From Cordylochernes scorpioides (taxonomy: Eukaryota > Arthropoda > Arachnida > Pseudoscorpiones > Chernetidae), in assembly GCA_030710605.1 (NCBI GenBank), contig CP092886.1, positions 51,204,390-51,268,389 of the forward strand: 64,000 bases of DNA. Direction: 5' to 3'. The notes below the pieces were generated by a model. That model was not told the DNA's origin, ran no database searches, and worked only from the letters and a program-made list of their open reading frames with translations. Below are positions 1-64,000 of the stretch, piece by piece; within the stretch, counting starts at the first letter, position 1, and each line of letters opens with the position of its first letter. Made by a program: the position numbers and the translations under genes.

Positions 1-130
1 AACCCGGCGCCATAGGGTGGCGTGATTATAGGAACCAATCAGGACGCTCCACCTTATGCGAGCGTCCAATATAAAAGGCCCAGAAATTAGAAAAAGGAGG
101 GTAGTTGTTTTCAGAGCGACGCCGTTAGAC
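1..130 (+). promoter_or_regulatory. Pol II promoter-like block at window edge
   Basis: The block has a CCAAT box at 35-39, a 7-bp inverted repeat (GGACGCT at 42-48, AGCGTCC at 61-67), a good TATA box (ATATAAAAGG, 69-78) and an initiator-like TCAGAG at 111-116. It is richer in GC than what follows. No open frame I trust lies downstream. It could be the promoter of an LTR or of a host gene cut off by the window edge; I cannot tell which. Confidence 0.35.
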
Positions 131-759
131 GGTCGGCTAGGGCATCCGCGACAGTCTTCGTCCGTGGTCTACCTCTACCTTCTTGGAGTTACCATCTAGA
201 CCTGCCTCTGTCTCTTGCTGTCCCAGTGCGGGAATCCCATCACGCACCCACTACCACGACTGCCCAATACATTCCACAACGGGATTACTACATATATATT
301 AAGAAAAAGGCAAATATATGTGTGTGCCAAAAGAGTCATTTCTCCCTTTAAAAATGCATTGTTTAATGAATTTTTGTTCATCCCACCATACAGAGCACAT
401 ACTGTTTGTGATAAATAATGCGCTATAACATCATCTTGAGCATCGTTTTTTTTTAATTCTAGCGATTTCATAACTCCTTCTTTATACTGATAAAGGCCAT
501 AGCACGATGGTCACAAGTAGGCTTTTCTGAATTTGACAAAGTTGGGAGGGTTTTGCGTGAACCCATTCAGAAAAAATAATTGTATGCTCTAAATATTTCA
601 GTTCATTTGACGTTGCATTATCACTTTTGGAAAATAATAAATATTTTATGCTAATTTATACCATTTGGATATAAGAGTAAAAATTATCTTTCCCTATATA
701 CCAGCCAGTATCAAAATTCTGTTTTCATAAAAAGATTTTAAAACACATTAAATAATATT
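131..759. other. Unassigned, AT-rich
   Basis: No gene is supported. Short frames on both strands at 196-471 overlap each other and show no domain. Near 330-356 a stretch (aaaagagtca, tctcccttta) resembles 43500-43520 and the 60.2-kb tandem repeat, so parts are probably decayed repeat. Confidence 0.5.
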
Positions 760-900
760 TAGAAAAAGGCATCTCCTTATCGTGCAACTGAAAGTTGCTG
801 ATGGCTTGCGCCATCTATTGGAATAAATATCAATAATTCCGATAGATGGCGCAAGCCATCAGCAACTTTCAGTTGCACGATAAGGAGATGCCTTTTTCTA
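760..900. repeat. Foldback element, 65-bp arms
   Basis: Arms 760-824 and 836-900 are reverse complements with one mismatch, around an 11-bp spacer. The arm begins TAGAAAAAGGCAT and ends at the motif gcgccatct. The same arm sequence occurs at 28685-28745, 29034-29070 and 31440-31500. The flank 898-952 is the reverse complement of 28632-28686, so this is a ribozyme-less relative of the repeat at 28.6-29.1 kb. Each arm carries AGATGGCGC (844-852 plus; 808-816 minus). Confidence 0.85.
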
Positions 901-1786
901 AATGTATGCACCTTATCCCAGTACAATATCACATTTGTACTATTTTTTCACATTAAATAATATTAAAAATATTATTATCTTTATTTTTTTCTATTGTATT
1001 TTCATATTAAATAATATATATATATATATATATATTGATAGTTCCATGTCTTCAAAGGTTTTATTTGTATGATATTAATTTTTAAATATTTTCTCTTTTT
1101 TTTTTTTTTTTCAACTTATAATTTATTTATAATTTCACGATATTATTTTAAATTTATTATATATATATATTTATGTTTTAATTTAACAAACTTTGCAAAC
1201 ATTTTATATGCTTTGTGTTTTCGATAAAAATGTTAGTTGATAATTTCTTCAATATATAAAGTCATTTTTATTTTACTTTTATATAAAAAATTATTTCTAC
1301 AAGCACATGATACAAAATAATTGTAAATATAAAATAGGCGTTATTGTTAATATTCAAAATATTCAAACCCTTATTTTACTCAATCTAATTTGTATATAAT
1401 ATATATATCAAATATTTTCGCCACATTGTGAATATAGGCAAAAAATATTTAAAACTTAATTCTATTGACGTTATGTAGCGCTGAGTTTGTTTTTGATATT
1501 AATAAGTTATAATACCTTGAAAAAGGTTGGCGTTCAGCCACAACTTGAATATTGGTAAATAAATTATAGTCTGATCCAAAATATACTCTTGAAAGGAGAT
1601 GTTATATTTTTAGATTCATAATATATATTAAAAAATAAAAGAAATTATTTAAAACAACCATAATTAGATAGTTTAGGATATATTCACATATTTTTAATCT
1701 TTATTCAATTGCTATAATCATAAGGGTTGTATATGCATGCTAAGACGGAATTTTTAGTGTCAAATGAACTACATATTTTTATAATA
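901..1786. other. AT-rich spacer with microsatellite and relic
   Basis: No gene is seen. It contains a (TA)n run around 1013-1035 and, at 1515-1565, a decayed half of the foldback family found intact at 59096-59292 (shared core aaggttggcgttcagcca). Confidence 0.55.
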
Positions 1787-4025
1787 CAGGGTGATCCAAA
1801 AGTCCCGCACAACTTTAAAAATTAATAACTCCGCGAATATTTGCGCTAGAGCAATGCGGTAAACACCATTGTGTTCAGAATGCAATGGGATTTTTTATGG
1901 CAAATATTGAAAATTTCGAAATTGATTTTAGTTACAATTTCATTCCCTAGATGGCGCTGTACCAGAATCAGAAATTAAGCGGCCAAATTGTTTGATTAAT
2001 TGAAAAGTATAACTGATCTACACGTATTTTTCATTTTTGTATACCAGGAAAGAATCCTAATAATATCAAATCGTTAATTAATAAAGCACCATTTCGCCAA
2101 AAGTTAGAAGAAATGGTTAACGATTTTTAAATACAATCTGAGATATGTAAAATAGGTATATGCAAATTAAAACATGTAGCAAAAAATATTTATATTTTTG
2201 ATAGAGTTTTGTCAAATATATTGAATGTTTGAAAAACATAGCTGAATTCAATACACGATTTTTTGAAATGTTAATATAGTACCAAAAATTATAATGGTAC
2301 TACTAATAGGATTTCTTGCTATAAGGAATGTGTAATTTCTTGAATAATTGGCGACACTCGACTATTTAACTGGAAATTTGTCATGATCCAACAAATGAAA
2401 TATAGATGGGAGTGACAAAATACATTTGTCGTACTTTATCCCGAATATCCTATGGGCTTGTCAAATGTTATCATTGTTTATTATACTGTACACGATTTTT
2501 AAAAATGTATCCCCTCAAATAAATATAATTTTTGAATCAACCATTTGCGTTGAAAAACGTGGTAGTAAAATCATTTTGTATTATTTTTTTTGCCCAAAAT
2601 TTCTAAAGGTGGGGGGTTACAGAGAATATTCCTTATGCTATTTTTTTTAATGAGCGAAAAGCGATAAATTAAACATAAGGGGTAAAATTGTGTGTACAGT
2701 GTTATTCGAGAAGTTATAACACTTTGGTCTGCACGACATAATATAAGATGTGAGCAAATGACAAACAAACAAAAATTACTTTTCACAAATAAAAAAAGAG
2801 ACAAGATATGAGGAGAGAATTTATTTACCCATAACCCAACACAAAGAGCTGCAAAACATTGGTAGATAATATAATACATGGAAGCTTTTATAACACATGA
2901 GGTAACTGCCTTCTCTCTTGTATTAGGTCAGAATCCTTGTTCAATGTGGCGACATTCATTCTCAAACACCGCCTGCAGACGATAGATGACAGAATGGACA
3001 GCATTAAATAAAATATCTGATGAAATTGATGAAACGTGCCGTCTGATAGAAGCCTTCAACATGACCAATGTGGTAGGCCGGCATCGATAAACACGCGACT
3101 TAATGTACCCCCATATCCAAAAATCGCAAGGCGTCAAGTCTGGTGATCTTGAAGGCCACTGGTGTATAAAGTGGCGACTTATCACACGATCTTCACCGAA
3201 CGTATCCTTCAGCAATTGTTTGGCACCGCGGGAGATATGAGGAGGTCCTCCATCTTGCATGAATGTTATTTCGCTCAGTGCTTGTCTGTCCTGCAATATG
3301 GGGATAACCTTTTCTCTCAAAAGTTGAACATAACGTTCACCAGTTACAGAAACGGTTTTAAATGTTCTTCCATTTATTTCTTCAAAGAAAAATGGCCCAA
3401 TAATAAAAGAAGAAGTGAACCCACACCAAACTATAACTCTGGGCTGATGAAGTGGCATTTCTTAAAAATTCCTAGGGTTTTCTGTTGCCCAAATGCGGCT
3501 GTTTTGAGTGTTAACTTCTCCGTTCAGAGTAAATTGAGCTTCATCTGTCCACAGAACATTCAACAGCCAGTTTTCATCAATATCAATTTGCCGGAAAACC
3601 CATGAAGCGAATTCTTGACGCTTCTCAAAATCGCCGACTTTTAGCTCGTGAAGTCTTTGAATTTTTTTACGGGTATTTTTTAAGAAAAATTCTTAGTGCT
3701 CTCCAAACTGTTCCATACCAAATCCCCGTTTGTCGAGCACTTACTTCTCCATACGTGGATAACGTTTCAATAGCTTCAACATTCTGCGAAACCGTAGCAA
3801 CCCCTGACTTGCATGTCGATGGTCTTCCACTCCGAGATTTTGCTTCCAGAGATCCAGTCTTCTCCAAAGTTTTTTATCATTCGCCTTAGAGAGTAGCAAC
3901 TCATGGGTCCTTTACCGCTTCGAATACCTTTAAAGGTACGAAACGCTTGTAAAGCTTCAGTGGCAGATTCTGAATTGCAATAAAAAAATTTCACCAAGAG
4001 TGATTTATGCTGTAGTGATGGTAAA
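1787..4025 (-). pseudogene. Mariner copy A transposase, broken
   Basis: This is a Tc1/mariner-superfamily transposase, a DNA cut-and-paste enzyme that inserts at TA. The C-terminal 176 codons (2928-3458) are open and hold MQDGGPPH and RSPDLTPCDFW, the second and third catalytic aspartates. By hand count 42 residues separate them, more than the 34 of classical mariner. The helix-turn-helix half (about 3600-4020) is split between frames. The original start codon region is deleted where an LTR fragment abuts (about 4025-4033). The stretch 1787-2660 is terminal inverted repeat and 3' UTR and is almost identical to 15360-16230 in copy B. Confidence 0.85.
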
Positions 4026-13902: not shown

Positions 13903-13904
13903 AT

Positions 13905-16230
13905 ATCGATTATGCTTTTTTTAATTCATTTGAAAAATTCAACTATCCCTGATCATTTATTTTACTCTGGGATGCCGTCACTACAGGATAAAGTACTCTT
14001 GGTGAAATTTTATTATTGCAATTCAGAATCTTCCACTGAAGCTTTAGGAGCGTTTCGTAACTTTAAAGGTATTCGAAGAGGTAAAGGACCCATGAGTTGC
14101 TACTCTCTAAGGAGAATGATAAAAAATTTTGAGAAGACTGGATCTCTGGAAGCAAAACCTCGGAGTGGAAGACCATCGACACGCAAGTCAGTGGCTGTTA
14201 CGGTTTCGCAGAATGTTGAAGCTATTGAAACGTTATCCACGTATGGAGAAGTAAGTGCTCGACAAGTTTCTCGACAAACGGGGATTTCGTATGGAACAGT
14301 TTGGAGAGCTCTAAGAATTTTTCTTTAAAAATACCCGTACAAAATTCAAAGATTTCAGGAGCTAAAGGTCGGCGATTTTGAGAAGCGTCAAGAATTTGCT
14401 GCATGGGTTTTCCGGCAAATTGATATTGATGAAAACTGGCTGTCGAATGTTCTGTGGACAGATGAAGCTCACTTTTCTCTAAATGGAGAAGTCAACACTC
14501 AAAACAGCCGCATTTGGGCAACAGAAAACCCTAGGATTTTTACAGAAATGCCACTTCATCAGCCCAGAGTTACAGTTTGGTGTGGGTTCACTTCTTCTTT
14601 TATTATTGGGCCATTTTTCTTTGAATAAATAAATGGAAGAACTTTTAAAACCGTTTCTGTAACTGGTGAACGTTATGTTCAACTTTTGAGAGAAAAGGTT
14701 ATCCCCATATTGCAGGACAGACAAGCACTGAGCGAAATAACATTCATGCAAGATGGAGGACCTCCTCATATCTCCCGCGGTGCCAAACAATTGCTGAAGG
14801 ATACGTTCGGTGAAGATCGTGTGATAAGTCGCCACTTTATACACCAGTGGCCTTCAAGATCACCAGACTTGACGCCTTGCGATTTTTGGCTATGGGGTAC
14901 ATTAAGTCGCGTGTTTATCGATGCCGGCCTACCACATTGGTCATGTTGAAGGCTTCTATCAGACGGCACGTTTCATCAATTTCAACAGATATGTTATTTA
15001 ATGCTGTCCATTCTGTCATCTATCGTCTGCAGGCGGTGTTTGAGAATGAAGGGCGCCACATTGAGCAAGGATTGTGATCTAATACAAGAGACAAGGCCTC
15101 CAAGGGACAAGTTAACTCATGTGTTATATAAGCTGCCATGTATTATATTATCTACCAATATTTTGAAGCTCTTTGTGTTGGGTTATGGATAAATAAATTC
15201 TGTCCTCATATCTTGTCTCTTTTTTATTTGTGAACAGTAATTTTTGTTTTTTTGTCATTTGCTCACATCTTATATTATGTCGTGCAGACCAAAGTGTTAT
15301 AACTTCTCGAATAACACTGGTGCACACAATTTTACCCCTTATGTTTAATTTATCGCTTTTCGCTCATTAAAAGAAATAGCATAAGGAATATTCTCTGTAA
15401 CCCCCCACCTTTAGAAATTTTGGGCAAAAAAAATAATACAAAATGATTTTACTACCACGTTTTTCAACGCAAATGGTTGATTCAAAAATTATATTTATTT
15501 GAGGGGATACATTTTTAAAAATCGTGTACAGTATAATAAACAATGATAACATTTGACAAGCCCATAGGATATTTGGAATAAAGTACGACAAATGTATTTT
15601 GTCACTCCCATCTATATTTCATTTGTTGAATCATGACAAATTTCCAGTTAAATAGTCGAGTGTCGCCAATTATTCAAGAAATTACACATTCCTTATAGCA
15701 AGAAATCCTATTAGTAGTACCATCATAATTTTTGGTACTATATTAACATTTCAAAAAATCGTGTATTGAATTCAGCTATGTTTTTCAAACATTCAATATA
15801 TTTGACAAAACTCTATCAAAAATATAAATATTTTTTGCTACATGTTTTAATTTGCATATACCTATTTTACATATCTCAGATTGTATTTAAAAATCGTTAA
15901 CCATTTCTTCTAACTTTTGGCGAAATGGTGCTTTATTAATTAACGATTTGATATTATTAGGATTCTTTCCTGGTATACAAAAATGAAAAATACGTGTAGA
16001 TCAGTTATACTTTTCAATTAATCAAACAATTTGGCCGCTGAATTTCTGATTCTGGTACAGCGCCATCTAGGGAATGAAATTGTAACTAAAATCAATTTCG
16101 AAATTTTCAATATTTGCCATAAAAAATCCCATTGCATCCTGAACACAATGGTGTTTACCGCATTGCTCTAGCGCAAATATTCGCGGAGTTATTAATTTTT
16201 AAAGTTGTGCGGGACTTTTGGATCACCCTG
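13905..16230 (+). pseudogene. Mariner copy B transposase, broken
   Basis: It lacks its 5' terminal repeat; about 65 bp upstream of the ATG (13971) remain. The helix-turn-helix half is open from MPSLQDK to IFL (13971-14328), with SARQVSRQTGISYGTVW as the second helix-turn-helix. A stop follows at 14326-14328. Further on are WTDEAHFSL (first catalytic D), a stop after FFFE, MQDGGPPH (second D) and RSPDLTPCDFW (third D), then a frameshift. The 3' repeat ends at 16230 next to TA. It is nearly identical to copy A. Confidence 0.85.
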
Positions 16231-17304: not shown

Positions 17305-17465
17305 ATATTCGTGGTTAACTTTTCTTGATTTATCAAGAAATTGGGTTGACAAAATATCACGGAGCAAGTTAAATGAACATTTAGTTCATTTCTGCTCCAC
17401 TAGATGGCGCTCTTCCATCAAGAAAAGCTCATGTGAGCCTGGTCAGGATATGCCTCTTTTGTTTC
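17305..17465 (+). repeat. Ribozyme-family repeat, half copy
   Basis: It runs from cgtggttaacttttcttga through tatcaagaaattgggttg, the CTCF-like CCACTAGATGGCGC (17397-17410), to ggtcaggatatgcctctttt. The hammerhead normally found upstream of cgtggtt is missing. Confidence 0.8.
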
Positions 17466-18690: not shown

Positions 18691-18837
18691 AAAAGAGGCA
18701 TATCCTGACCTGACTCACATGAGCATTTCTAGATGACAGAGCGCTATCTAGTGGAACAAAAATAAACTAAACGTTTATTTAACTTGTTCCGTTATATTTG
18801 GCCAACCCAATTTCTTGATATATCAAGAAAAGTCAAC

Positions 18838-18876: not shown

Positions 18877-18922
18877 CCTGGAAGCCACTAGGACCAAATT
18901 TTGGCCGTAGAGGTACAGTTTG

Positions 18923-18966: not shown

Positions 18967-19112
18967 GACTCTTGATTTATCAAGAAATTGGGTTGGCCGA
19001 ATATCACGGATCAAGTTAAATAAACGTTCAGTTTATTTTTGCTCCACTAGATGGCGCTCTGCCATCTGGAAAAGCTCATATCTGCATGGTCAGGATATGC
19101 CTCTTTTATTTT

Positions 19113-19635: not shown

Positions 19636-19790
19636 ATGAAAATTATAAACTATTTTAGACGCGTAAGATTCTTTTTGAAATTAAAAAGACGGAGACGCTT
19701 ACATTTAATTTCAAAAAGAATCTTACGCGTCTAAAATAGTTTCTAATTTTCATAACAGATGGCGCGCTAGTGCATCATAATACAAAATTT
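19636..19790. repeat. Foldback, 48-bp arms, gatggcgcgct family
   Basis: Arms 19636-19683 and 19706-19753 are reverse complements with one mismatch around a 22-bp spacer. It is followed directly by aacagatggcgcgctagtgcatcataat, split copies of which occur at 21603-21630, 31700-31725 and 59763-59780. Confidence 0.85.
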
Positions 19791-21469: not shown

Positions 21470-21640
21470 AGGTATTTTATCGAATTTCGAAACTATTATA
21501 GACTATTATATTAATGGGATTAATTTTTCATTGCATTAAGGACAGTAAAAATTGCTTATTTTCAAAAAGAATCATACAAGTCTATAATAGTTTCGAATTT
21601 TGATAACAGATGGCGCGCTAATACATCATAATAGTAATTT
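21470..21640. repeat. gatggcgcgct foldback relative, decayed
   Basis: It contains tttttcattgcattaagga and cagtaaaaattg as at 31765-31900, a short inverted pair (cgaaactattatagac at 21486-21501, gtctataatagtttcg at 21579-21594), then ataacagatggcgcgctaat (21604-21623). Confidence 0.7.
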
Positions 21641-23841: not shown

Positions 23842-25724
23842 TATGTAATAAATTAGCAGAACAATGTTTGCCTTCTTCACGAATTATCCGTGATTATGTC
23901 AATCCTTCGGATTCTCTCTCATCTTTCATTTCTGATTCTTCCAGCCACTACACTATCATGTAGCAATAATGGTTTATGTGTCCTGATTGGTTTCTACCAT
24001 AATATTATGAACCTGGAGTTGTGGATCGTTCTTTATCGCCACCTCAACATTCTGAACTATTGTAATGAGTCAAGATGCATTGTTTTAATATATTTAACTC
24101 GATTCTTTTCTCACATAATTTTTTTTCTTGTCTTAGCTCCGATGATTGGGAGTACGTAGCTGATCAAAAGTTAACCCTCCCAGAGGTTTCGCTCCTTTAA
24201 GCCACCATGCTGCTCTAATATAAAATTAAGGTATTCGACGTAAACATCCTGCAATAGAGAGGACTTCTTGGTTAGCGTATTTAAGATAATTATGGGTATA
24301 TATCCTTAGAAATAATATTTATAAATACCTGCATTAAGAGATACTTTAACGCAAATATGCCACGAAACGCCGAAAAAGCGCGCCATCTATATTTAGAAAA
24401 CGAAACTATTTCCAAGCGATGCATATTATTTATTGTCCTTCTTCTCATCTAATGAACCTGGATAAATTTTAGTACTACGAAACATAATAACGGTATACCA
24501 ACATTTGAAAATTATCCCGCCTGTGTTTCTTTTGAACGAAAAATCGAAATTTATTTTAAGGAGAAATAACGATTATTTCTAACCTTAGGGATGAAGTATG
24601 AAAGGATGAATTGTGAAGAGTAAGGATAAACGGAAAAATAAAATGTCCAGGGATGGGAATAATTTTTAAATGTTGTTTTAAAATCATAAGCCGCATTATA
24701 TTGAATTATAAAATAAATGTATAATATATACGAAGAGATATTAATATTTCCCTCCTCTATATACAACATTTAGAATAATATAGCCAATTCATATTGAGCT
24801 TACCTTCTGCATTGTGTGTGAATAATAAAGAACTAGTTATGTTGGGGAATCTCCACAAATTTGAGAAATTCAACACAAAAACACTGTGCTTATTAATTTA
24901 TTCGTTAGCCAAGCCTGAGCGTGGAAAGAATTTCGTTTTAAATTTCGAGTTTTTCTCTCTGAATAATAAATAACTTCACGACTAGCTTTGAAAACTGTTG
25001 TTTTTAATAGAGATATTCACAATTATCTGTCAAATTTTGAACGTTTTAATTCTTAATAAAGGCGCAGATTACAAAAATGAAAAAAGTCTGGCGTATCAAA
25101 TAACGCCCATATTAGTTGCAGTTTTCTTCTGCTCCGAGTTAATTAGTCAAATATAACGAGAACAGAGAGATCTAAAGATGACATTTCACTCAATTAAAAA
25201 AACTGAATTTTTTTTTCAAACGAGGAGTGATCATTTGATGTAAATTACTTCTTAGCTTAATGTTTTGATAACTAGACTGGCTTGTTTGAGAACACACACA
25301 TATATAAATTGTTAAAAATTAGAAAAAGTTGTTATTACTGCTTGAGAATCATTAAACAAATTTATGAACAAAAAAAAAACATTTTTTTGTTAATATGTCA
25401 GTTTAGCAAGCTAAAACTGAACACTTAAATTATCATTTATTATATATGTATATATTATATATAATATTTTACATTAATAAAGCTGAATAGATTGTTGTAA
25501 ATATAAGTTTGAAGCTATTTAACACTGCACTTATTTGTTTTCAAGTAAAAGAAGCTTCCTATTGTCTTTAAATCGATGATAATTATGCGGAAGCACTGGC
25601 TTATCAGTGGAGAACCTTTCCAGCAGTTTTGCCAATTTAAATAACCATCTAATATTGTATTTTGTTATATATATATGTGTGAAAAGTAAAAATAATTTTT
25701 AAAAAGATTTTGTTATTAAAATCA
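23842..25724. other. No gene seen
   Basis: AT-rich. It contains a reversed core of the ctgatgag foldback family at 24165-24205 (ccctcccagaggtttcgctcc) and an isolated GCGCCATCT at 24380-24388. The frame 23890-24159 is hydrophobic and unrecognised. Confidence 0.5.
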
Positions 25725-25916
25725 AAAAAGGCATATCCTGACCATGTTCACATAAACTTTTAGATGGCGCTCTGGCTTTGATAAATCAAGAAAACGGGTT
25801 GGCCAAATATCAGGGAAAAGGATAAATCAACGTTTAGTTGATTTCTCTTCCAATAGATGGCGCTCTGCCATCTTAAAGTTCATGTAAACGTGGTCAGGAT
25901 ATGCCTTTTTGATTTT
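25725..25916. repeat. Ribozyme-family foldback lacking the ribozyme
   Basis: The two halves face each other: ggcatatcctgaccatgttc at the left and its complement ending ggtcaggatatgcc at the right, around tgataaatcaagaaaacggg. Both carry AGATGGCGC (25762-25770 and 25855-25863), in the same orientation. The hammerhead centre is gone. Confidence 0.8.
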
Positions 25917-25922
25917 AATATA

Positions 25923-28631: not shown

Positions 28632-29064
28632 TGTGAAAAAATAGTACAAATGTAATATTGTACTGGGGTAAGGTGCATAAATTAAGAAAAAGGCATCTAC
28701 TTATCGTGCAACTGAAAGTTGCTGATGGCTTGCGCCATCTATCGGAATAAATATCAACTATTCTCGTTGATTTTTAATTATTCCAGAATTGGCCAAATAC
28801 CCATTCTTTATTAATCAAGAAAAGCTAACCACGGACGCGTTTCGGGCTGTTGGCCCTCATCAGCGTGGTGCAAGCTGTATCTCAACGACCAAAAAATTGG
28901 TCATTAAGGCATCCTAAAAAATCATAAAACGGGTAGTTAAGGTCAGAATTGCGTTAGAACGCTACAAAATGTGAAAAAATAGTACAAATGTAATATTGTA
29001 CTGGGATAAGGTGCATAAATTAAGAAAAAAACTTTCAGTTGCACGATAAGTAGATGCCTTTTTC

Positions 29065-29407: not shown

Positions 29408-29452
29408 GCTTGCACCACGCTGACGAGGGCCAACTCCCCGAAACGCGTTCAA
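29408..29452 (+). ncRNA. Hammerhead-like core, stem I broken
   Basis: CTGACGA, stem II (GGG with CCC) and GAAACGCGTT are intact. The base-pairing partner of ACCACG has become aaagtt, so stem I cannot close. Confidence 0.5.
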
Positions 29453-29610
29453 AGTTCAATTTTTTTTTTAATCAAGAAATGGGGTTGGCCAAATATCAGG
29501 GAACAGGTTAAATCATTGTTTAGCCGATTTTTGTTCCACTAGATGGCGCTCAGCCATCTAAAAGGCTCATGTGAAAGGTATGGATATACCTATATAGCTT
29601 TTAATATCGA

Positions 29611-30934: not shown

Positions 30935-31197
30935 AAAAATAGAAAAGGTATAACCTGACCAGGAGCACAAATGCTTTTCAGAAGGCAGGGCGCCATCTGG
31001 TGGAACAGAAATCAACTTAACATTGATTTAACCTGTTCCCTGATATTTGGCCAACCTAATTTCGCAATATTTATCAAGAAATTGTTTTGGCCAAATATCA
31101 GGGAACAAGCTAAATCAATGTTTAGTTGATTTCTGTTCAACCAGATGGCGCTCTGCCTTCTGAAAAGCACATGTGCTCCTGGTCAGGATATACCTAT
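30935..31197. repeat. Ribozyme-family foldback lacking the ribozyme
   Basis: The arms face each other around gcaatatttatcaagaaattg. The left arm carries CCACCAGATGGCGC on minus (30990-31003), a full CTCF consensus, and the right arm a one-mismatch copy (31138-31151). In this element the two CTCF-like motifs point away from each other. Confidence 0.85.
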
Positions 31198-31239: not shown

Positions 31240-31505
31240 CGACCTAAATACTTGTTTCATGGTTTTTCAAGATGCCCCAAATACCAGCATTTTTGGTCAT
31301 TGAGGTACAGCTTGCACCACGCTGAGGAGGGCCAACAGCCAGAAACGTGTACGTGGTCAGCTTTTCTTAATTAATCAAGAAACGGTATTTGGTCAATTCT
31401 GGAATAATTAAAAATCAACAATTCGTCGATATTTATTCCGAGAGATGGCGCAAGCCATCAGAAACTTTTAGTTGCACGATCAGAAAATGCCTTTTTTCTC
31501 ATATA
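31240..31505 (+). repeat. Retrozyme-like repeat
   Basis: It is the same family as 28632-29070: a gcatttttggtcattgaggtac lead, a hammerhead, tcttaattaatcaagaaacgg, AGATGGCGC (31443-31451), and the end tagttgcacgatcagaaaatgcctttttt. Confidence 0.8.
31309..31362 (+). ncRNA. Hammerhead ribozyme, likely functional fold
   Basis: Stem I is AGCT/AGCT and ACCACG/CGTGGT, as in the intact copy. The catalytic box is CTGAGGA, allowed because position 7 is variable. Stem II is GGGC with GCCA, losing one base pair next to the core. GAAA is followed by ACGTGTA, giving a two-pair stem III and cleavage after GTA. Confidence 0.75.
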
Positions 31506-31679: not shown

Positions 31680-31960
31680 CTTAATACAAATTATGTTACG
31701 ATGCACTAGCGCGCCATCTGTTATCAAATTACAAAACTATTTTAGAGGCGTAATATTATTTTTAAAATAAAACAATTTCTACTGTCCTTACTGCAATGGA
31801 AAAATTAACTGGCGAAACCGCTGGGAGGGTTCACCACTGATGAGCCAGGCCCTCCCTTTAATTTTTCCATTGCAGTAAGGACAGTAAAAATTGTTTTATT
31901 TTAAAAATAATATTACACACACACGCGCCTCTAAAATAGTTTTGTAACTTAATACAAATA
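31680..31960. repeat. Foldback, gatggcgcgct family
   Basis: Arms at about 31735-31805 and 31865-31945 are reverse complements over aataaaacaatttctactgt and ccttactgcaatgg; the right arm has a (CA)n insert near its outer end. The centre is gaaaccgctgggagggttca, ccaCTGATGAG, ccaggccctccc, with a GGGAGGG/CCCTCCC hairpin. GCGCCATCT lies at 31711-31719. Confidence 0.85.
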
Positions 31961-32566: not shown

Positions 32567-33480
32567 CAGGGTGATCCAAAAGTCCCGCACAACTTTAAAA
32601 ATTAATAACTCCGCGAATATTTGCGCTAGAGCAATGCGGTAAACACCATTGTGTTCAGGATGCAATGGGATTTTTTATGGCAAATAATGAAAAATTCGAA
32701 ATTGATTTTAGTTACAACTTTATTCGCTAGATGGCGCTCTACCAGAATCAGCGATTCAGCGGCCAAATTGTTTGATAAATTGAAAAATATAACTGAAAGA
32801 CACGTATTTTTACTTTTTGAATACCAGGAAAGAACCCTAATAATATCAAATGATAAATTAATAAAACACCATTTCGCCAAAAGTTAGAAGAAATGGTTAA
32901 CGCTTTTTAAATACAATCTGAGATATGTAAAATAGGTATATGCAAATTAAACATGTAGCAAAAAAAAACTGATATTTTGGATGGGGTTTGCTGGAATCCT
33001 CTCAGCTAGTTAAATTTCGAAAATAATAATTTTCTAATTTTTAAAATTCAACTCTCTCTCAGTATCGATTATATTTATTTTAATTCATTTGAAAAATATT
33101 TATCTATCTCTGATGATTTATTTTACTCTGGAATGCCGTTGTTGTTTTTGTCGTGTCCAATAAAGATCCTCAGATATCTCCATGCATCTCTATCACAGCA
33201 GCAGCAGCATTGTCCACTATCTTGGGTGTGTAAAGCAGCTGCTCTGGGTCTATGTCAATTTTCTGCAAGGCTGCAGGCATGAGAATATGTGGGTATGTGT
33301 TAGTTCCACACCAGGACAGTTGTTGCATGTTCTATAGGTTCTTGTGCCATCTGGATGTATTGTCATCCTTTATAATGTTTTGTTCTAAATCTTGTTATAG
33401 TTTTGTCATTTATTCTCTCAGAGTTTATTTCACATTTTGATCTTTTCTTATTTTTGTTAAATTATCTTGTATCTTGCAAA

Positions 33481-40389: not shown

Positions 40390-42601
40390 CTGGAATGCCG
40401 TCACTACAGGATAAAGCACTCTTGGTGAATTTTTTAAATTGTGATTCAGAATCTTCCACTGAAGCTTTACGAGCGTTTCGTTCCTTTAAAGATATTCGAA
40501 GCGGTAAAGGACCAATGAGTTGCTACTCTCTAAAGCGATTGATTAAAAGTTTTGAGGAAACTGGGTCTCTGGAAGCAAAACCTCTGAGTGGAAGACCATC
40601 GACATGCAAGTCAGTGGCTGTTACGGTTTTGCAGAATGCTGAAGCTATTGAAACGTTATCCACGTATGGAGAAGTAAGTGCTAGACAAGTTTCTCGACAA
40701 ACAGGGATTTCGTATGGAACAGTTTGGAGAGAACACACATTTAGAATTTTTCTATAAAAATACCCTAAAAAAATTCAAAGTTTTCACGAGTTGAAAGTCA
40801 GCGATTTTGAGAAGCGCCAAGAATTCGCTGCATGGGTTTTCCGGCAAATTGATATTGAAGAAAACTGGCTGTCAAATGTTCTAAGAACAGATGATGCTGA
40901 CTTTATCTAAAGGGAGAATTTAACATTCAAAACTGCCTCATTTTGGCAACAGAAAACCCTAGGATTTTTACAGAAATACCACTTCATCAGCACAGAGTTA
41001 CAGTTTTGTGTGGGTTCACTTCTTCTTTTATTAGTGGGCCATTTTCTTTGAAAAGTCAATGAAAGAACTTTTAAAACCGTTTTTGTAACTGGTGAACGTT
41101 ATGTTCAACTTTTGAGAGAAAAGGTTATTCCCATATTGCAGGACAGACAAGCACTAAGCGAAATAACATTCATGCAAGATGGAGGACCTCCTCATATTTA
41201 CCGCGGTGCCAAACAATTGCTGAAGGATACGTTCGGTGAAATTCGTTGATAAGTCGCCACTTTATATACCAGTGGCCTCCAATATCACCAGACTTGACGC
41301 CTTACAATTTCGGTTATGGGGTACATTAAGTCGCGTTTTTATCGATGCCGGTCTACCACATTGGCCATGTTGAAGGCTTCTAACAGATGGCACGTTTTAT
41401 AAATTTCAACTATTTAATTGTGATTATTCTGTCATCTATCGTCTGCAGGCGGTGTTTGAGAATGAAGGGCGCCACATTGAGCAAGGATTGGGACCTAATA
41501 CAAGAGAGAAGGCAGTTACCTCATGTGTTATATTTTGCAGCTCTTTGTTTTGGGTTATGGGAATAATAAATGCTGTCCTCACATCTTGATTCTTTTTTTT
41601 TTCTGTGAACAGTAATTTTTTGTTTGTCATTTGCCCACATCTTATATTATGTCGTGGAGGCCAAAGTTTTATAACTTCTCGAATAACACTGGTATGCACA
41701 ATTTTACCCCTTATGTTTAGTTTATCGCTTTTCGCTCATTAGAAGAAATAGCATAAGGAATATTCTCTGTATCCCCCCCCCCCCAACTTTAGAAATTTTG
41801 CGCAAAAAAAAAAATACAAAATGATTTTACTACCACGTTTTTCAACGCAAAAGGTCGATTTAAAAATGATTTTTTTTTTGTGGGGATACATTTTCAAAAT
41901 TATGTACAGTATAATAAACAATGATACCATTTGACAAACCCATTGGATATTTGGAATAAAGTACGACAAATATATTTTGTCACTCCCCTCTATAATTCAT
42001 TTTTGGATCATGACAAATATCCAGTTAAATAGTCAAGTGTCGCCAATTAGTCAAGAAACTATACATTCCTTATAGCACGAAATCCTATTAGTAGTGCCAT
42101 CATAATTTTTGGTACTATATTAACATTTCAAAAATCGTGTATTGATATCAGTAGTTATTTTCAAACATTCTATTTCACAAAACTCCATCTAAAATATAAA
42201 TATTTTTTGCTACATATTTTAATTTGCATATACCTATTTTACATATCTCAGATTGTATTTAAAAATCGTTAACCATTTCTTCTAACTTTTGGCGAAATGG
42301 TGTTTTATTAATTTATCATTTGATATTATTAGGGTTCTTTCCTGGTATTCAAAAAGGTAAAATACGTGTCTTTCAGTTATATTTTCAATTTATTAAACAA
42401 TTTGGCCGCTGAATCTCGGATTCTGGTAGAGCGCCATCTAGCGAATAAAGTTGTAACTAAAATCAATTTCGAATTTTTCATTATTTGCCATAAAAAATCC
42501 CATTGCATCCTGAACACAATGGTGTTTACCGCATTGCTCTAGCGCAAATATTCGCGGAGTTATTAATTTTTAAAGTTGTGCGGGACTTTTGGATCACCCT
42601 G
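40390..42601 (+). pseudogene. Mariner copy C transposase, broken
   Basis: From the ATG at 40394, MPSLQDKALLVNFLNC runs to the second helix-turn-helix SARQVSRQTGISYGTVW, with a small insertion before IFL and a stop (40755). WTDEAH is mutated. MQDGGPPH is kept (41172-41195). SPDLTPYNF replaces the third aspartate by N. The 3' repeat ends at 42601. Confidence 0.85.
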
Positions 42602-42603
42602 TA

Positions 42604-44539: not shown

Positions 44540-44815
44540 CACGTTAAAGTTACTGATGGGTTGCGTCATCTATCGGAAGAAATATAAACTAATGGTTTAT
44601 TTTTTAAAATCCCAGAATATTGGTCAAAGTTTATCTTGCTGGACCTCATCAGTAAGGTTCAAGTTGCATTTCAAGAACCAAAATATTTTTTCCAAGAAGT
44701 GTATTGGAATAAATATTCTGAAATAATTAACAATCGACGATTAATTCATATTTATTTCGGCAGATGGCGCAAGCCATCAACAACTTTCATTTTAACGATC
44801 AGGATTTGCTTTAAT
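44540..44815. repeat. Diverged retrozyme-like foldback
   Basis: The left arm (acgttaaagttactgatggg, tgcgtcatctatcgg) and right arm (cggcagatggcgcaagccatc, aacaactttcat) are diverged reverse complements of the 760-900 family. A degenerate reversed core (ggacctcatcagtaagg) is at 44641-44658. AGATGGCGC lies at 44762-44770. Confidence 0.7.
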
Positions 44816-45771: not shown

Positions 45772-46323
45772 CAGGGTGATCCAAAAGTCCCGCACAACTT
45801 TAAAAATTAATAACTCCCCGAATATTTGCGCTAGAGCAATGCGGTAAACACCATTGTGTTCAGGATGCAATGGGATTTTTTATGGCAAATAATGAAAAAT
45901 TCGAAATTGATTTTAGTTACAATTTTATTCGCCAGATGGCGCTCTACCAGAATCAGAGATTCAGCGGCCAAATTGTTTAATAAATTGAAAAATATAACTG
46001 ATCGACACGTATTTTTCCTTTTTGAATACCAGGAAAGAACCCTAATAACATCAAATAACAAATTAATAAAACACCACTTCGCCAAAAGTATGAAGAATTG
46101 GTTAACGATTTTCAAATACAATCAGAGATATGTAAAATAGGTAAATGCAAATTAAAACATGTAGCAAAAAGAAAATTGATATTTTAGATACGGTTTGTTT
46201 CCGAAGATAATAAATTTCTAATATTTTTAATTCAACTCTCACTCAGTGTCGATTATGTTTATTTTAATTCATTTGAAAAATATGTATCTATCTCTGATAA
46301 TTTATTTTACTCTGGAATGTCGT

Positions 46324-55278: not shown

Positions 55279-57134
55279 GTACCCATACAAAATTCAAAGA
55301 TTTCACGAGCTGAAAGTTGGCGATTTTGAGATGCGTCAAGAATTCGCTGTATGAATTTTCCGGCAAATTGATATTGATGAAAACTGGCTGTCGAATGTTC
55401 TGTGGACAGATGATGCTCACTTTTCTCTAAACGGAGAATTTAACATTCAAAACAGCCGCATTTGGGCAACAGAAAACCCTAGGATTTTTACAGAAATGCC
55501 ACTTTACCAGCCTAGAGTTACAGTTTTGTGTGGGTTCACTTCTTTTATTATTAGGCCATTTTTCTTTGAAAAATCAATGGAAGAACTTTTAAAACATTTT
55601 TTGTAACTGGTGAACGTTATGTTCAACTTTTGAGAGAAAAGGGTATTCCCATATTGCAGGGCAAAAGCACTAAGCGAAATAACATTCATGAAAGATGGAG
55701 GACCTCCTCATATCTCCCGAGGTGCCAAACAATTGCTGAAGGATACGTTCGGTGAAAATCGTGTGATAAGTCGCCACTTTATATACCAGTGGCCTCCAAG
55801 ATCACCAGACTTGACGCCTTGCGATTTTTGTCTATGGGGGGTACATTAAATCGTGTGTTTATCGATGCTGGCCTACCACATTGGCCATGTTGAAGGCTTC
55901 TATCAGATGGCACGTTTTATCAATTTCAACAGATATATTATTTAATGCTGTCCATTCTGTCATTTATCGTCTGCAGGCGGAGATTGAGAATAAAGGGTGC
56001 CACATTGAGCAAGGATTGTGACCTAATACAAGAGAGAAGGCAGTTACCTCATGTATTATATTATCTACCAATATTTTGCAGCTCTTTGTGTTGGGATATG
56101 GGGATAATAAATGCTTGCCTCACATCTTGACTCTTTTTTTGTGAACAGTAATATTTTGTTTGTCATTTGCTCACATATTATGTCGTGCAAACCAAAGTCT
56201 TATAACTTCTCGAATAACACTGGTACACACAATTTCCCCCCCTTATGTTTAGTTTTCGCTTTTCGCTCATTAGAAGAAATAGCATAAGGAATATTTTCTG
56301 TACACCAATAATTTTAGAAATTTTGTGGAAAAAAAATAATACAAAATGATTTTACTACCACGTTTTTCAACGCAAAAGGTCGATTTAAAAATTATTTTTA
56401 TTTGAGGGGACACATTTTTTGAAATTGTGTACAGTATAAGAAACAATGATAACATTTGACAAGCCCATAGGATATTTGGAATAAAGTACGACAAATATAT
56501 TTTGTCACTCCCCTCTATATTTCATTTATTGGATCATGACAAATATCCAGTTAAATAGTCAAGGGTCGCCAATCAGTCAAGAAACTACACATTTCTTATA
56601 GCAAGAAATCCTATTAATAGTGCCATCATAAATTTTTGGTACTATATTAACATTTCAAAAATTCGTGTATTGATATCAGCAGTGTTTTTCAAACATTCAA
56701 TCTATTTCACAAAAACCCATATAAAATATAAATATTTTTGCTACATGTTTTAATTTGCATTTACCTATTTTACATATCTCTGATTGTATTTGAAAATCGT
56801 TAACCAATTCTTCATACTTTTGGCGATATGGTGTTTTATTAATTTGTTATTTGATATTATTATAGGGTTCTTTCCTGGTATTCAAAAAGGGAAAATACGT
56901 GTCGATCAGTTATATTTTTCAATTTATCAAACAATTTGGCCGCTGAATCTCTGATTCTGGTAGAGCGCCATCTGGCGAATAAAATTGTAACTAAAATCAA
57001 TTTCGAATTTTTCATTATTTGCCATAAAAATTCCATTGCATCCTGAATACAATGGTGTTTACCGCATTGCTCTAGCGCAAATATTCGGGGAGTTATTAAT
57101 TTTTAAAGTTGTGCGGGACTTTTGGATCACCCTG
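55279..57134 (+). pseudogene. Mariner copy D transposase, C-terminal part
   Basis: It starts at PYKIQRFHELKVGDFE, so both helix-turn-helix domains are lost. WTDDAHFSL, KDGGPPH (Q to K before the second D) and RSPDLTPCDFC remain, with several frameshifts. The 3' terminal repeat ends at 57134. Confidence 0.85.
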
Positions 57135-57149
57135 TATATAAAGAAGCTA

Positions 57150-57385
57150 CTGGGACCAAAAAAATATTTTTTGGTCGCAGTGGTTCAGCCTACTCCACGC
57201 TGACGAGCGCCAAAAGCGCGAAACGCGTTCATGGATGGCTTTTCTTGATTTATCAAGAAATTGGGTTGGCCAAATATCAGGGAACAGGCTAAATCAATGT
57301 TTAGTTGATTTCTGTTCCACCAGATGGCGCTCTGCCTTCTGTAAAGCACAAGTGCTCCTGGTCAGGATATGCCATTTTTAATATT
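57150..57385 (+). repeat. Ribozyme-family repeat
   Basis: It lies 14 bp beyond mariner D: a ttttttggtcgcagtggttc lead, a hammerhead, gatttatcaagaaattgggt, the full CTCF consensus CCACCAGATGGCGC (57317-57330), and the end ggtcaggatatgcc. Confidence 0.85.
57187..57240 (+). ncRNA. Hammerhead ribozyme, good fold
   Basis: Stem I is AGCC/GGCT, an internal loop, then CCACG with CATGG (one A-C mismatch). The box is CTGACGA. Stem II is a perfect GCGC/GCGC with a CAAAA loop, then GAAA. Stem III is AC/GT with a two-base loop and cleavage after GTT. Stem II has changed from GGGC/GCCC in the other copies, with pairing kept. Confidence 0.78.
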
Positions 57386-58099: not shown

Positions 58100-58315
58100 T
58101 TAAAAATAAAGAGAGCATATCCTGACCACGAGCACATGTGCTTTTTAGAGGCAGAGCGCCATCTAGTGGAGTAAAATAAACAAAACGTTTATTTAACTTG
58201 CTCCGTGATATTTGGCCAACCCAATTTATTGATAAATCAAGAAAAGCCATCCATGAACGCGTTTCGCGCTGTTGGTGCTCGTCAGCATGGAGCAGGCTGT
58301 ACCACATATATATAG
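58100..58315 (-). repeat. Ribozyme-family repeat, minus
   Basis: It runs from gagagcatatcctgaccacg through the CTCF consensus on minus (58156-58169) and ttgataaatcaagaaaagcc to a hammerhead. It interrupts the local tttaattgaaag repeat. Confidence 0.85.
58245..58298 (-). ncRNA. Hammerhead ribozyme, good fold
   Basis: On minus, stem I is AGCC/GGCT, an internal loop, then CCATG with CATGG, all paired. The box is CTGACGA, stem II GCAC with GCGC (one mismatch), then GAAA, stem III AC/GT and cleavage after GTT. Compared with 57187-57240, the stem I mismatch is repaired here (CCATG). Confidence 0.78.
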
Positions 58316-59292: not shown

Positions 59293-60039
59293 TAATGATT
59301 TAAGTATGGATTGCTCTATTTTCAGAACGATATATATATATATATATCTTCTTTTTTAAATTCAATCTGCTCTCAATATTAAATGCCAATGTTGTAAAAA
59401 GGACAGCACTTTTGTCTGCCGGGAAAGATGAGAGGGTTATGTGGAATCAATTACTTTAAAAAGGTGATAAACTCTGGGTTTTTTTCTTTTATTGTAGTGC
59501 TAGGTACCTCTGTTAAAGATGACCATTAGAAATTATTTTATCCTTAGTAAAATAGATATCACGAAATTGGACATTTATTCTGACTTCAAAACAGCTCTTA
59601 ATTCTTTTTCCCAAAAGAATAAAACGATATTACATAAGTTTATCAAACATTACTATTGATGAGCAAGCCTTTCCAATATTTTTCATCGCGGTAAGGACAG
59701 TATAAGTTTATATTTTGTATAAAAGAAACATTTGTGCTGAAATCCTTTCATTTTCTATATATAGATGGCGCGTTATTGCTTTATGTCAAATATTGTTTAT
59801 TGATCACCTTTTTTCTTTAAATTCCTCTCATCTAAATCCATAACAATGTATTGTTAAAATAAATTTTCACATAACTAATGTGTAGGTAATACCCAGTGCA
59901 GTATTATTTCAAAATATCATTTCTGAATATCTTTATGTTTTAGATGGCAGCTTCTTAGACGAACAAAATGATCTCATGTCAATTTATTTAAAAGGTCAGT
60001 ACCAAACTTGTCGTCATAACATTGAATTGTTTTTCTCTA
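59293..60039. other. No gene seen; foldback relic
   Basis: A decayed copy of the gatggcgcgct family lies at 59650-59785 (attgatgagcaagcctttcc, gcggtaaggacagtataag, then atagatggcgcgtta). The rest is AT-rich and unassigned. Confidence 0.5.
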
Positions 60040-60845
60040 AAATTAATAGATAAGATGGTGCTATGTCTAGGAGAGGACTCTCTCAAGGTGGGGGAGCCTT
60101 CCTCGCTTGTGAAATTTATACATATATTAACATACAGTTTGACCTTTTGTCTGAATTCGCCAAAACTGGTGTTGTGGCTCATTCTTTATGATCACTAAGT
60201 AAAGTTTATTTTACTCAGGTGATTCATAGTGCATCGTTTTGATGCGCAAATAAAGGGAGAAGTGCCTTTTTGGTACATATTATATATATTTCTGTATATA
60301 TCCCCATAGATAAGATTACATGGTGCAATAGCTATATCTATGAGAACTCTCTCAAGGTGGGGAGCCTTCCTCACTTATGAAATTTATACATATATTAACA
60401 TACAGTTTGACCTTTTGTCTGAATTCGCCAAAACTGGTGTTGTGGCTCATTCTTTATGATCACTAAGTAAAGTTTATTTTACTCAGGTGATCCATAGTGC
60501 ATCGTTTTGATGCGCAAATAAAGGGAGAAGTGCCTTTTTGGTACATATTATATATATTTCTGTATATATCCCCATAGATAAGATTACATGGTGCAATAGC
60601 TATATCTATGAGAACTCTCTCAAGGTGGGGAGCCTTCCTCACTTATGAAATTTATACATATATTAACATACAGTTTGACCTTTTGTCTGAATTCGCCAAA
60701 ACTGGTGTTGTGGCTCATTCTTTATGATCACTAAGTAAAGTTTATTTTACTCAGGTGATCCATAGTGCATCGTTTTGATGCGCAAATAAAGGGAGAAGTG
60801 CCTTTTTGGTACATATTATATATATTACTGTATATATCCCCCTCT
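60040..60845. repeat. 268-bp tandem repeat, three copies
   Basis: The marker ctctctcaaggtgggg starts at 60078, 60347 and 60615, giving steps of 269 and 268 bp. The second and third units are almost identical. The first is diverged at its start and carries a G/C difference in the marker. Each unit has tttgaccttttgtctgaatt and cgttttgatgcgcaaataaa. Confidence 0.93.
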
Positions 60846-62665: not shown

Positions 62666-62928
62666 GTTTATATAAAAGGGCGTACCTGGAGCCGTTAAGG
62701 AAAATTATATTTTTTTTCATAAAATATTTCGAGAGATTGCTCCCGCTTTATCAATTTATCGCACAGTAAACTTAATTTACAAATTATTGTAGATTTATTT
62801 TCATGTGATCTACAAGAATTTGTAAATTAAGTTTACTGTGCAATAAATTGCTAAAGAGGGAGCAATCTCTCGAAATATTTTGAGATTTTTTTTTCTTTAC
62901 GGATCCAGGTACGCCCTTTTATATAAAC
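62666..62928. repeat. Foldback, about 110-bp imperfect arms
   Basis: The outer ends are gtttatataaaagggcgtac at 62666 and its complement ending at 62928. The inner arms contain tttcgagagattgctccc and acagtaaacttaatttacaa with complements on the other side. A TATA-like tataaaagg occurs at each outer end. Confidence 0.85.
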
Positions 62929-63659
62929 ATATTTTATATTGTTAGTTCAATTTGTACATCCAATTTTGTTCAAGGTTCAAAAAGCTATATTATTTTTTTC
63001 AGACCCGGCTATATGTATTGTGGATATTGTTTGGATCTTGGTAAGAATAAATAACCAGATATTCTATATTTCATCTCTCTATAGCAGTCAGTGTAATCAG
63101 CCGAGGAGTGAACCTCCTCCTTGTTCACGAAGATGTGCGCGGGCGTCTGAAAAATGTGATTCGCCAAATCCGACTCTAATGAAGTGTGAAAACGGAATGG
63201 GCCGAGGAACTTGCCCGAGGCACTAGACCGAGCGGCCATCTCGAAAATTGAGGAGTGTTGAGGAGGTTATCAATTTAAGTTGAAGGGGATTTCTGCTCTT
63301 CTCTACTTCTGTAAATAAGTCTGTTTGGCGGTACAAACTGTCGATGGCCCATAACAAGGCCGAACTCGGAATTAAGCACTTTTCTATAAAAATGTTTCAA
63401 GGATCCTCGATTCTTGCCCAAATCCACCATAAAACAAGTTACAAATGTGTATCGATGAGTGAGTTGAATTTACCTTTGAAAAAGTTAACTAAAACAAAGT
63501 AGTATTTCATTCATTATAAATTTAAGATAATCTCCCTGCATCTAAAGGCATATTTTCTATATGACTATGATCTTGAAACTAAAGCTCGGATCTTAGAAGG
63601 TGCCAACAAATACCTCTTTACGAGAACGAAGAAATAACAATATTTCGAAAAATGTTTTT
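62929..63659. other. Unassigned
   Basis: The region 63100-63260 is GC-richer (cgaggagtgaacctcctcct hairpin at 63103-63122). The frames 62939-63226 (+) and 63009-63239 (-) overlap each other and have no domain. At 63355-63382 a stretch resembles the internal part of 5S rRNA (see rejected items). Confidence 0.4.
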
Positions 63660-63980
63660 TTTTTTGCTTATCCCTAGTACACGTGGTACAGGCCATGATA
63701 ATCATGGTGGGTAGTTAGCGACTGCTTTTTACTGTAAGCGCACCACATGTCTACACATGTGAAAAGCAGTTCGACTTTGCACCTACAAATGTGCCAGAGC
63801 CCCGTTTGGTTACTTGCATTCGCTGGTGGGGTTGGACTTTTGCAAGAATCGGGGGGCCATTGGAGCATTTTTTTTAAACAGAAAAAAGTGTCCAATACGG
63901 GAATCGAACCCGGGTCGTAGTGGTTGAAAACCAAAAGGTTCAACGAGTCTTCCACCGACCCCCCATTCCATCGAAAAATG
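63660..63980 (-). repeat. tRNA-derived SINE, nearly full length
   Basis: On minus: a tRNA-like head (63980-63890) with the B box GGTTCGATTCC and a D-arm region, a body including gtagacatgtggtgcgctta, and an A-rich tail (a T run at 63653-63664 on plus). The body is shared with 12841-12969 and the head with 13235-13325 and 21347-21430. SINEs of this kind depend on LINE enzymes for movement. Confidence 0.75.
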
Positions 63981-64000
63981 TGAAACCTCTGAAGCCAGTT

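What the first reader, a model, noticed from the sequence alone, without database searches (positions are those of the whole stretch)
1..64000. 25 copies of a CTCF core motif spread by unrelated repeats
The exact 9-mer AGATGGCGC (or its complement) occurs at 844, 1949, 17402, 19049, 19757, 21608, 25762, 25855, 29541, 31143, 31443, 32729, 44762, 45934, 57322, 59763 (plus) and 808, 16060, 24380, 28732, 30990, 31711, 42431, 56965, 58156 (minus). Chance predicts about 0.5 in 64 kb on two strands, less in AT-rich DNA. Six copies (17397, 19044, 29536, 57317 plus; 30990 and 58156 minus) match the full 14-base CTCF consensus CCASYAGRKGGCRS. They sit in at least three unrelated repeat classes: ribozyme repeats, other foldbacks and mariner terminal repeats. 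Mammalian SINE B2 elements are known to spread CTCF sites; I know of no such case for retrozymes or mariner in arthropods.
Basis: partly seen in the sequence, partly recalled or inferred. Interest (0 to 1): 0.9.

Follow-up and report, generated by a model that had tools for sequence, protein, structure and literature searches.

The report
CTCF-like sites carried by mobile elements
Three kinds of mobile DNA element in this animal genome carry the same short sequence, which looks like a two-part landing site for the genome-organising protein CTCF, so they may have scattered well over a hundred thousand such sites, although nobody has yet shown that CTCF binds them.

Summary
In detail: all 25 AGATGGCGC copies and 6 CTCF 14-mers are where stated. 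Genome-wide there are 272,513 copies against 4,288 reversed. Window copies lie in three families: retrozyme-like hammerhead repeats R1 (14), foldback repeats R2 (5), mariner-like terminal sequences M (6).

New here: 158,176 copies (58%) also have TAGTT exactly 20 bases upstream, against 2,779 one base further out. AGTT at -19 is where published CTCF test sites have AGTT of the upstream motif read by fingers 9-11. Of 52 offsets, that motif fits the families best at its native spacing. The genome encodes a CTCF with conserved core fingers. In 92 long-gap R1 copies not picked for the motif, AGATGGCGC is the best conserved of 50 nine-base windows.

Against: R2 lacks CC in the core; only 4-6 of 9 upstream positions match; CTCF finger 9 differs and finger 11 was not read; the 9-mer was preselected; single copies decay; occupancy is untested.

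Best reading: CTCF composite sites used and spread by unrelated elements; probable, not proven.

The parts
844..852 (+). core motif, R1 (F2 subfamily), right half of an inverted dimer
808..816 (-). core motif, R1 (F2), left half of the same inverted dimer (motifs point outward)
17402..17410 (+). core motif, R1 (F1); 14-base CTCF consensus from 17397
19049..19057 (+). core motif, R1 (F1); 14-base CTCF consensus from 19044; in inverted dimer 18680-19118
25762..25770 (+). core motif, R1 (rearranged copy, foldback 25714-25920)
25855..25863 (+). core motif, R1 (F1)
28732..28740 (-). core motif, R1 (F2)
29541..29549 (+). core motif, R1 (F1); 14-base CTCF consensus from 29536
30990..30998 (-). core motif, R1 (F1); 14-base CTCF consensus; left half of inverted dimer with 31143
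31143..31151 (+). core motif, R1 (F1), right half of inverted dimer
31443..31451 (+). core motif, R1 (F2)
44762..44770 (+). core motif, R1 (F2)
57322..57330 (+). core motif, R1 (F1); 14-base CTCF consensus from 57317
58156..58164 (-). core motif, R1 (F1); 14-base CTCF consensus
19757..19765 (+). core motif, R2 (F5), directly 3' of palindrome 19634-19755
21608..21616 (+). core motif, R2 (F5)
24380..24388 (-). core motif, probable R2 (stands alone; flank read by eye as R2)
31711..31719 (-). core motif, R2 (F5), next to palindrome 31722-31954
59763..59771 (+). core motif, R2 (F4)
1949..1957 (+). core motif, M, 164 bases inside terminal end at 1785
16060..16068 (-). core motif, M, 164 bases inside terminal end at 16232
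32729..32737 (+). core motif, M, 164 bases inside terminal end at 32565
42431..42439 (-). core motif, M, 164 bases inside terminal end at 42603
45934..45942 (+). core motif, M, 164 bases inside terminal end at 45770
56965..56973 (-). core motif, M, 163 bases inside terminal end at 57136
57200..57224 (+). hammerhead core words (CTGACGA...GAAAC) of R1, 122 bases upstream of the motif at 57322
   Evidence: Rfam HH9 57184-57249 at 27 bits, gathering 52
29420..29444 (+). hammerhead core words of R1, 121 bases upstream of the motif at 29541
28839..28863 (-). hammerhead core words of R1, 123 bases upstream of the motif at 28732
   Evidence: Rfam HH9 28814-28879 at 26.5 bits, gathering 52
58261..58285 (-). 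hammerhead core words of R1, 121 bases upstream of the motif at 58156
   Evidence: Rfam HH9 58236-58301 at 21.5 bits
18847..18871 (-). hammerhead core words of an R1 arm whose motif has decayed (AGATAGCGC)

Best explanation
Three mobile-element families that do not resemble each other overall each carry one copy of a two-part CTCF binding site. R1 is a retrozyme-like hammerhead repeat (352-base units in the one array read, also inverted dimers); R2 a short foldback repeat; M a mariner-like element with terminal sequences of about 425 bases shared between copies. The site is core YAGATGGCGC (read by CTCF fingers 3-7) plus AGTT 19 bases upstream, the register of the motif read by fingers 9-11. 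I infer that the elements keep the site because CTCF binding helps them, most likely by holding their transcribed region open in chromatin or acting at their promoter. Amplification then scattered about 158,000 two-part sites and 270,000 cores. Shown: the motif, its fixed spacing, its three carriers, its conservation within R1, and a CTCF gene. Inferred: that CTCF binds, that binding helps the element, and that host chromosome folding is affected.
For: Motif and consensus counts far above the reversed control. TAGTT at -20 with Y at -1: 158,176 against 3 reversed; one base further out 2,779 against 0. AGTT at -19 is the most widely shared fixed-offset 4-base word of R1, M and R2 (0.63, 1.0, 0.60 of 27, 8 and 15 contexts). 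A 5-base run in register in three sequences (F1, M and F5 majority sequences; F4 lacks it) has p = 0.0001 against random genome sequence. CTCF test sites in PMC11194110 (passages) have AGTT or AGTA at the same -19. Slid over 52 offsets against 110 sites, their TGCAGTTCC fits best at -22, its native spacing, by mean and by worst family. Position -1 is C or T in 106 of 110 sites and in 92 of 92 distinct R1 rows chosen by flanks; in those rows AGATGGCGC is the most conserved 9-column window of 50 although it holds a CpG. CTCF gene: 60% identity to human over fingers 1 to early 8; by my reading the helices of fingers 3, 4, 5 and 7 are the same or nearly so, and finger 10 keeps QKQLL. TAGATGGCGCTC stands in a CTCF site quoted in PMC5739101 (passage). 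R1 anatomy: hammerhead words 121-123 bases upstream of the motif on the same strand; four units at 352-base spacing in L122.
Against: No occupancy data. No assigned R2 copy has CC at -5/-4 (0 of 24), and its F4 subfamily mostly lacks AGTT (1 of 5). Only R1 meets the full core. Mean matches to TGCAGTTCC are 3.8, 6.0 and 4.3 of 9 (R1, M, R2); the variant TGCAATACC ranks -22 only fifth; a shuffled site does as well in 34 of 3000. In the CTCF gene the helix of finger 6 is partly and that of finger 9 clearly different from human, and finger 11 runs off the piece read, so the upstream half of the site rests on finger 10 alone. Upstream of the core R2 does not resemble R1 or M beyond TAGTT (F1-F5 p 0.47, F5-M p 0.50; F2-F5 p 0.05), and all identical columns in F1, M and F5 together give only p 0.04. 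R1 and M may share an ancestral upstream stretch (p 0.011 and 0.004), so independent acquisitions may number two. Copies decay: 55 of 92 R1 rows keep the exact core (these are atypical long-gap copies, 2 rows cut off), and 41 of 55 model hits spanning the site (F1 and F2 models may count a copy twice). An older fourth repeat (R3) usually reads AGATGGCGT, with 0 of 8 exact.
Confidence: 0.55

Rival explanations
1. Hitch-hiking. A GC-rich 9-mer happens to lie in three very abundant families, amplification did the rest, and no protein maintains it.
For: Families were found because they hold the 9-mer; among many repeat families some word will be shared. 79 of 85 motif sites taken without regard to family fall in the three families (17 of 17 random, 8 of 8 and 54 of 60 on C1), so enrichment outside them was not seen. 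Copies decay.
Against: AGTT at a fixed -19 and Y at -1 were not used to find the sites and recur in all three families. The 9-mer is the best conserved window inside R1.
Confidence: 0.2
2. A shared site for another host factor (another zinc-finger protein, YY1, or a promoter factor such as the snRNA-promoter complex), used as a promoter module.
For: The site sits at a constant place in R1 and M. The genome has many C2H2 proteins (407 matches to the typed fingers). The core resembles the YY1 core (recalled). Fingers 6 and 9 of the CTCF here differ from human.
Against: YY1 prefers A at -1 (recalled); that base is C or T in 106 of 110 sites, and two non-repeat sites with A at -1 look by eye like gene starts (L051, L079). 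Upstream stretches of 11 of 42 listed U1 genes hold no such core; several of the 11 are near-identical copies and two (L111, L118) have R3-like sequence upstream by eye. The -19 spacing fits CTCF.
Confidence: 0.19
3. An RNA hairpin (AGATGGC...GCCATCT) in the element transcripts is what is conserved; the DNA word is a by-product.
For: F1 copies can form AGATGGCgctctGCCATCT and F2 GATGGCgcaaGCCATC.
Against: In many F1 copies the partner reads GCCTTCT or is pushed away by CT repeats while the core stays; M lacks the partner.
Confidence: 0.04
4. The families share one ancestral 30-70 base module by descent or capture, later bound or not by CTCF. Not exclusive of the best explanation.
For: R1 and M resemble each other upstream in register (16 of 30 for F2-M, p 0.004; 15 of 30 for F1-M, p 0.011). 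R1 and, by eye, R2 have hammerhead-like words roughly 115-123 bases upstream (where L040 shows an R2 copy).
Against: R2 shares little but TAGTT and the core with the others; with the motif masked the families do not join at the thresholds used.
Confidence: 0.1

Closest known systems
Mammalian SINE B2 and other repeat-borne CTCF sites (recalled)
   Same: A repeat carries a CTCF core and amplification multiplies candidate sites.
   Different: Here several unrelated families, among them retrozyme-like repeats and a mariner-like element, carry core plus part of the upstream motif; no occupancy data.
CTCF site in the Drosophila R1 rDNA retrotransposon (PMC3024428, passages)
   Same: CTCF site inside an arthropod mobile element, bound in ChIP.
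   Different: One bound site out of 46 tested, in a site-specific rDNA element, not a genome-wide dispersed set.
Metazoan non-LTR retrozymes (PMC7229834, parts 1-3 of 6)
   Same: Type I hammerhead words, ~350-base tandem units, dimers to multimers.
   Different: The parts read mention no CTCF site; several R1 copies here are inverted dimers.
CTCF two-part sites (PMC10287918 and PMC11194110, passages)
   Same: Core plus upstream motif at a set spacing; a one-base longer spacing is also tolerated.
   Different: The upstream half here is TAGTT rather than TGCAGT or TGCAAT; R2 lacks CC in the core.

Membership tests
CTCF binding site | 14-base core consensus CCASYAGRKGGCRS | tested here: inconclusive
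   Met by 6 of 25 window copies, all R1; 60,893 genome-wide; R2 and M majority sequences do not meet it.
CTCF binding site | Upstream motif at the native spacing | tested here: inconclusive
   AGTT at -19 in 78 of 110 sites; TGCAGTTCC fits best at -22 of 52 offsets but with only 3.8-6.0 of 9 matches; TGCAATACC ranks -22 fifth.
CTCF binding site | A CTCF protein with conserved core-reading fingers in the genome | tested here: met
   Fingers 1 to early 8 in L029, end of 8 to 10 in L037. Fingers 3, 4, 5, 7 and 10 alike; 6 and 9 differ; 11 not read.
CTCF binding site | Bound by CTCF in vivo | not testable with these tools
   No ChIP or CUT&RUN data at hand.
Metazoan non-LTR retrozyme (R1) | Type I hammerhead ribozyme | tested here: inconclusive
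   Core words in 5 copies of the window, 4 of them with the motif at 121-123, and in 4 of 4 units of L122; Rfam HH9 hits stay below the gathering score; the energy fold of one unit does not show the full hammerhead.
Metazoan non-LTR retrozyme (R1) | Tandem units of 150-450 bases | tested here: met
   Four units at 352-base spacing in L122, the one array read.
Metazoan non-LTR retrozyme (R1) | Self-cleaving RNA and circular RNA | not testable with these tools
   No transcript data.
mariner-like element (M) | Inverted terminal repeats at both ends of one element | tested here: inconclusive
   Six ends in the window share the outer 27 bases and a motif at 163-164, but no element with both ends was seen.
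mariner-like element (M) | DDE transposase | tested here: inconclusive
   Helix-turn-helix DUF4817 hit in one open frame; the C-terminal piece has no Pfam hit.
Known element class for R2 | Any class | not tested
   Palindromic copies; hammerhead-like words in permuted order by eye, no Rfam hammerhead hit in one copy; no class assigned.

The most novel reading that the evidence does not exclude
Unrelated RNA-based and DNA-based mobile elements in one genome have converged on, or exchanged, the same two-part CTCF site because CTCF is a host factor they depend on; as a result this genome holds an enormous set of repeat-borne CTCF sites, with outward-pointing pairs made by inverted retrozyme dimers, reshaping its chromosome folding.
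Probability: 0.3. Interest if true: 0.85.

Novelty: new variant of a known kind. Interest (0 to 1): 0.62.

Why it matters
If CTCF does bind these copies, retrozyme-like elements gain a candidate host factor, and this genome gains a massive repeat-made set of candidate boundary sites. It would make testable whether CTCF serves mobile elements directly, since two unrelated modes of replication would use the same site, and whether repeat-borne sites change chromosome folding outside mammals.

Tried and rejected
Promoter of the snRNA type as the meaning of the site: 150-base pieces around the start of 11 of 42 listed U1 matches hold no such core. Telomere repeats at five contig ends to place the host: none found, uninformative. 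Rfam on one R2 palindrome and on six R3 loci: no hammerhead hit, only low-value hits to other families. Open-gap pattern for R1: I set the gap too long (85-115; the usual gap is 81), so it caught only 158 long-gap copies. Composite pattern first sent one base off, kept as an off-register control; 59 of its 100 listed places, counted by eye, are R3. Family counts use a crude rule: whatever was not M or R2 counted as R1, so unassigned sites are in there. Test of core variants that CTCF tolerates against variants it does not (two patterns): not completed. Open-interior pattern for M: not answered. Random triples sharing a 9-mer were set aside as a test, because the families were preselected. Literature: the 9-mer search gave 239 papers, 30 listed, none on point by title; searches joining hammerhead with CTCF (2 papers) and CTCF motif with mariner (1 paper) listed nothing on point; others: seen as listings, from which five papers were opened.
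Full report
OBSERVATION. The window lies in a 2.62 Gb genome of 24 contigs. The word occurs 272,513 times there, the reversed word 4,288 times. CCASYAGRKGGCRS occurs 60,893 times, reversed 970. An unselected set of 20 stretches (198,948 bases) holds 17 copies against 0.32 expected from dinucleotides. The window is rich (25 against a genome mean of 6.7) but its carriers are the ones found elsewhere.

CARRIERS. With the motif masked, 50 contexts fall into groups of 27, 14, 8 and 1 at score 34 (at score 40 three of the 14 stand alone). R1 (F1 and F2 subfamilies) has hammerhead core words 121-123 bases upstream of the motif on the same strand. On C1 one array read in full has four units at exactly 352-base spacing, each with one hammerhead and one motif. 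This fits the metazoan non-LTR retrozymes of PMC7229834 (parts 1-3 of 6 read), although Rfam's hammerhead model scores below its gathering cut-off. Several R1 copies in the window are inverted dimers, with motifs pointing outward where both are intact. R2 (F4 and F5) is a short, often palindromic repeat that ends some 20 bases after the motif, judged by eye from where copies diverge. M is mariner-like: six of six terminal ends in the window share the outer 27 bases, and the motif sits 163-164 bases inside, reading inward; about 425 bases are shared by copies that differ further in. No M element with both ends was seen. Of 85 sites taken without regard to family (17 random, 8 and 60 on C1), 42 are R1, 34 R2, 3 M and 6 unassigned; by eye two of the six look like distant R2 and two like gene starts with A before the core.

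IS SHARING THE 9-MER A TEST? No. The families were found because they hold it. Random triples of sequences of similar length shared any 9-mer in 122 of 4000 trials and a GC-rich one in 1 of 4000, but with many repeat families to choose from that is not decisive. The useful question is what else they share.

WHAT ELSE THEY SHARE. Among 4-base words at fixed offsets, AGTT at -19 is the most widely shared by R1, M and R2 (0.63, 1.0, 0.60). A five-base run in register in three sequences (F1, M, F5) has p = 0.0001 against random genome sequence; F4 lacks it. Genome-wide, TAGTT at -20 with Y at -1 occurs 158,176 times (reversed 3), and only 2,779 times at -21. Reference CTCF sites in PMC11194110 (passages) read TGCAGTTCC, eight bases, CCAGC, AGAGGGCAC, so their AGTT also lies at -19. 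That paper assigns the upstream motif to fingers 9-11. Slid over 52 offsets against 110 sites, TGCAGTTCC fits best at -22, its native place, by mean and by worst family; a shuffled version reaches the same worst-family score in 34 of 3000. Against this, the variant TGCAATACC ranks -22 only fifth, and matches are 3.8, 6.0 and 4.3 of 9. Y at -1, as in the CTCF consensus, holds in 106 of 110.

CONSERVATION. In 92 distinct R1 rows picked by flanks and not by the motif (atypical copies with a long gap), AGATGGCGC is the most conserved 9-column window of 50 (mean 0.938), although it holds a CpG, and -1 is C or T in 92 of 92. Even so only 55 of 92 keep the exact core, and of 55 model hits spanning the site in the window and random sample 41 do (F1 and F2 models may count a copy twice). 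So the source lineages look constrained and the single copies do not.

THE PROTEIN. A further exon holds the end of finger 8 through finger 10: finger 10 keeps QKQLL, finger 9 differs, finger 11 runs off. So the reading of the core is well supported, that of the upstream half less so. A second copy lies 36 kb away next to a gap and may be an assembly duplicate.

RIVALS. YY1 is disfavoured by the base at -1. A snRNA-type promoter box is disfavoured by 11 U1 upstream stretches without the core, some of them near-identical and two with R3-like sequence by eye. An RNA hairpin is disfavoured because the partner strand is broken in many F1 copies while the core stays. Hitch-hiking of a chance word, another zinc-finger protein, and an ancestral module shared by R1 and M remain open. 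A fourth, older repeat with hammerhead-like words (R3) usually reads AGATGGCGT and, in the copies fetched, has TAGTT at -21; it was found through the off-register pattern, so it is not independent support.

VERDICT. That CTCF binds them and that the elements profit is inference. Repeat-borne CTCF sites are known in mammals (recalled), and one site in a Drosophila element was bound in ChIP (PMC3024428, passages). What would be new is the carriers, the two-part site in unrelated families, and the scale; the searches that joined these topics were listings only. The species was not identified.

Noticed in passing
G000:C19:7265915-7266553 and 7302233-7302871 (L029, L030): Two CTCF-like gene copies 36 kb apart with the same finger stretch, the second beside a run of N; real duplication or assembly duplicate.
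   Followed up: partly
L103-L106, L108-L110; L019:2502-2629: A fourth, older repeat family (R3) with hammerhead-like words upstream and GGTCAATAGATGGCG[TC]; 0 of 8 unselected copies have the exact 9-mer.
   Followed up: partly
window 31680-31960: R2 palindrome centre holds hammerhead words (GAAAC, CTGATGAG) in permuted order with a 5-base stem, by eye; no Rfam hammerhead hit.
   Followed up: partly
window 23068-23466: GIY-YIG fragment (Pfam E 0.00085, below cut-off), possibly from a Penelope-like element.
   Followed up: no
window 60060-60841: Tandem array, 2.9 copies of a 268-base unit, 98% alike.
   Followed up: no
window 7696-7771: Palindrome scoring as a microRNA-like hairpin on both strands, below the family's cut-off.
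   Followed up: no
G000:C1:2288015-2332157: Local series of motif copies with two interspersed upstream variants (TAGTTCAGATATCACATAAC and TAGTTTGAATCCCTCATAAC), perhaps a young array.
   Followed up: no
L048: Unassigned, GC-rich site AAAACTAGATGGCGCGCCCTCTGGAGG that reads as a CTCF-like core on both strands; possible single-copy CTCF site.
   Followed up: no
G000:C24: Contig 24 (180 Mb) is out of size order and may be a sex chromosome; the window on it is about 3.8 times richer in the motif than the genome mean. Density by chromosome was not measured.
   Followed up: no
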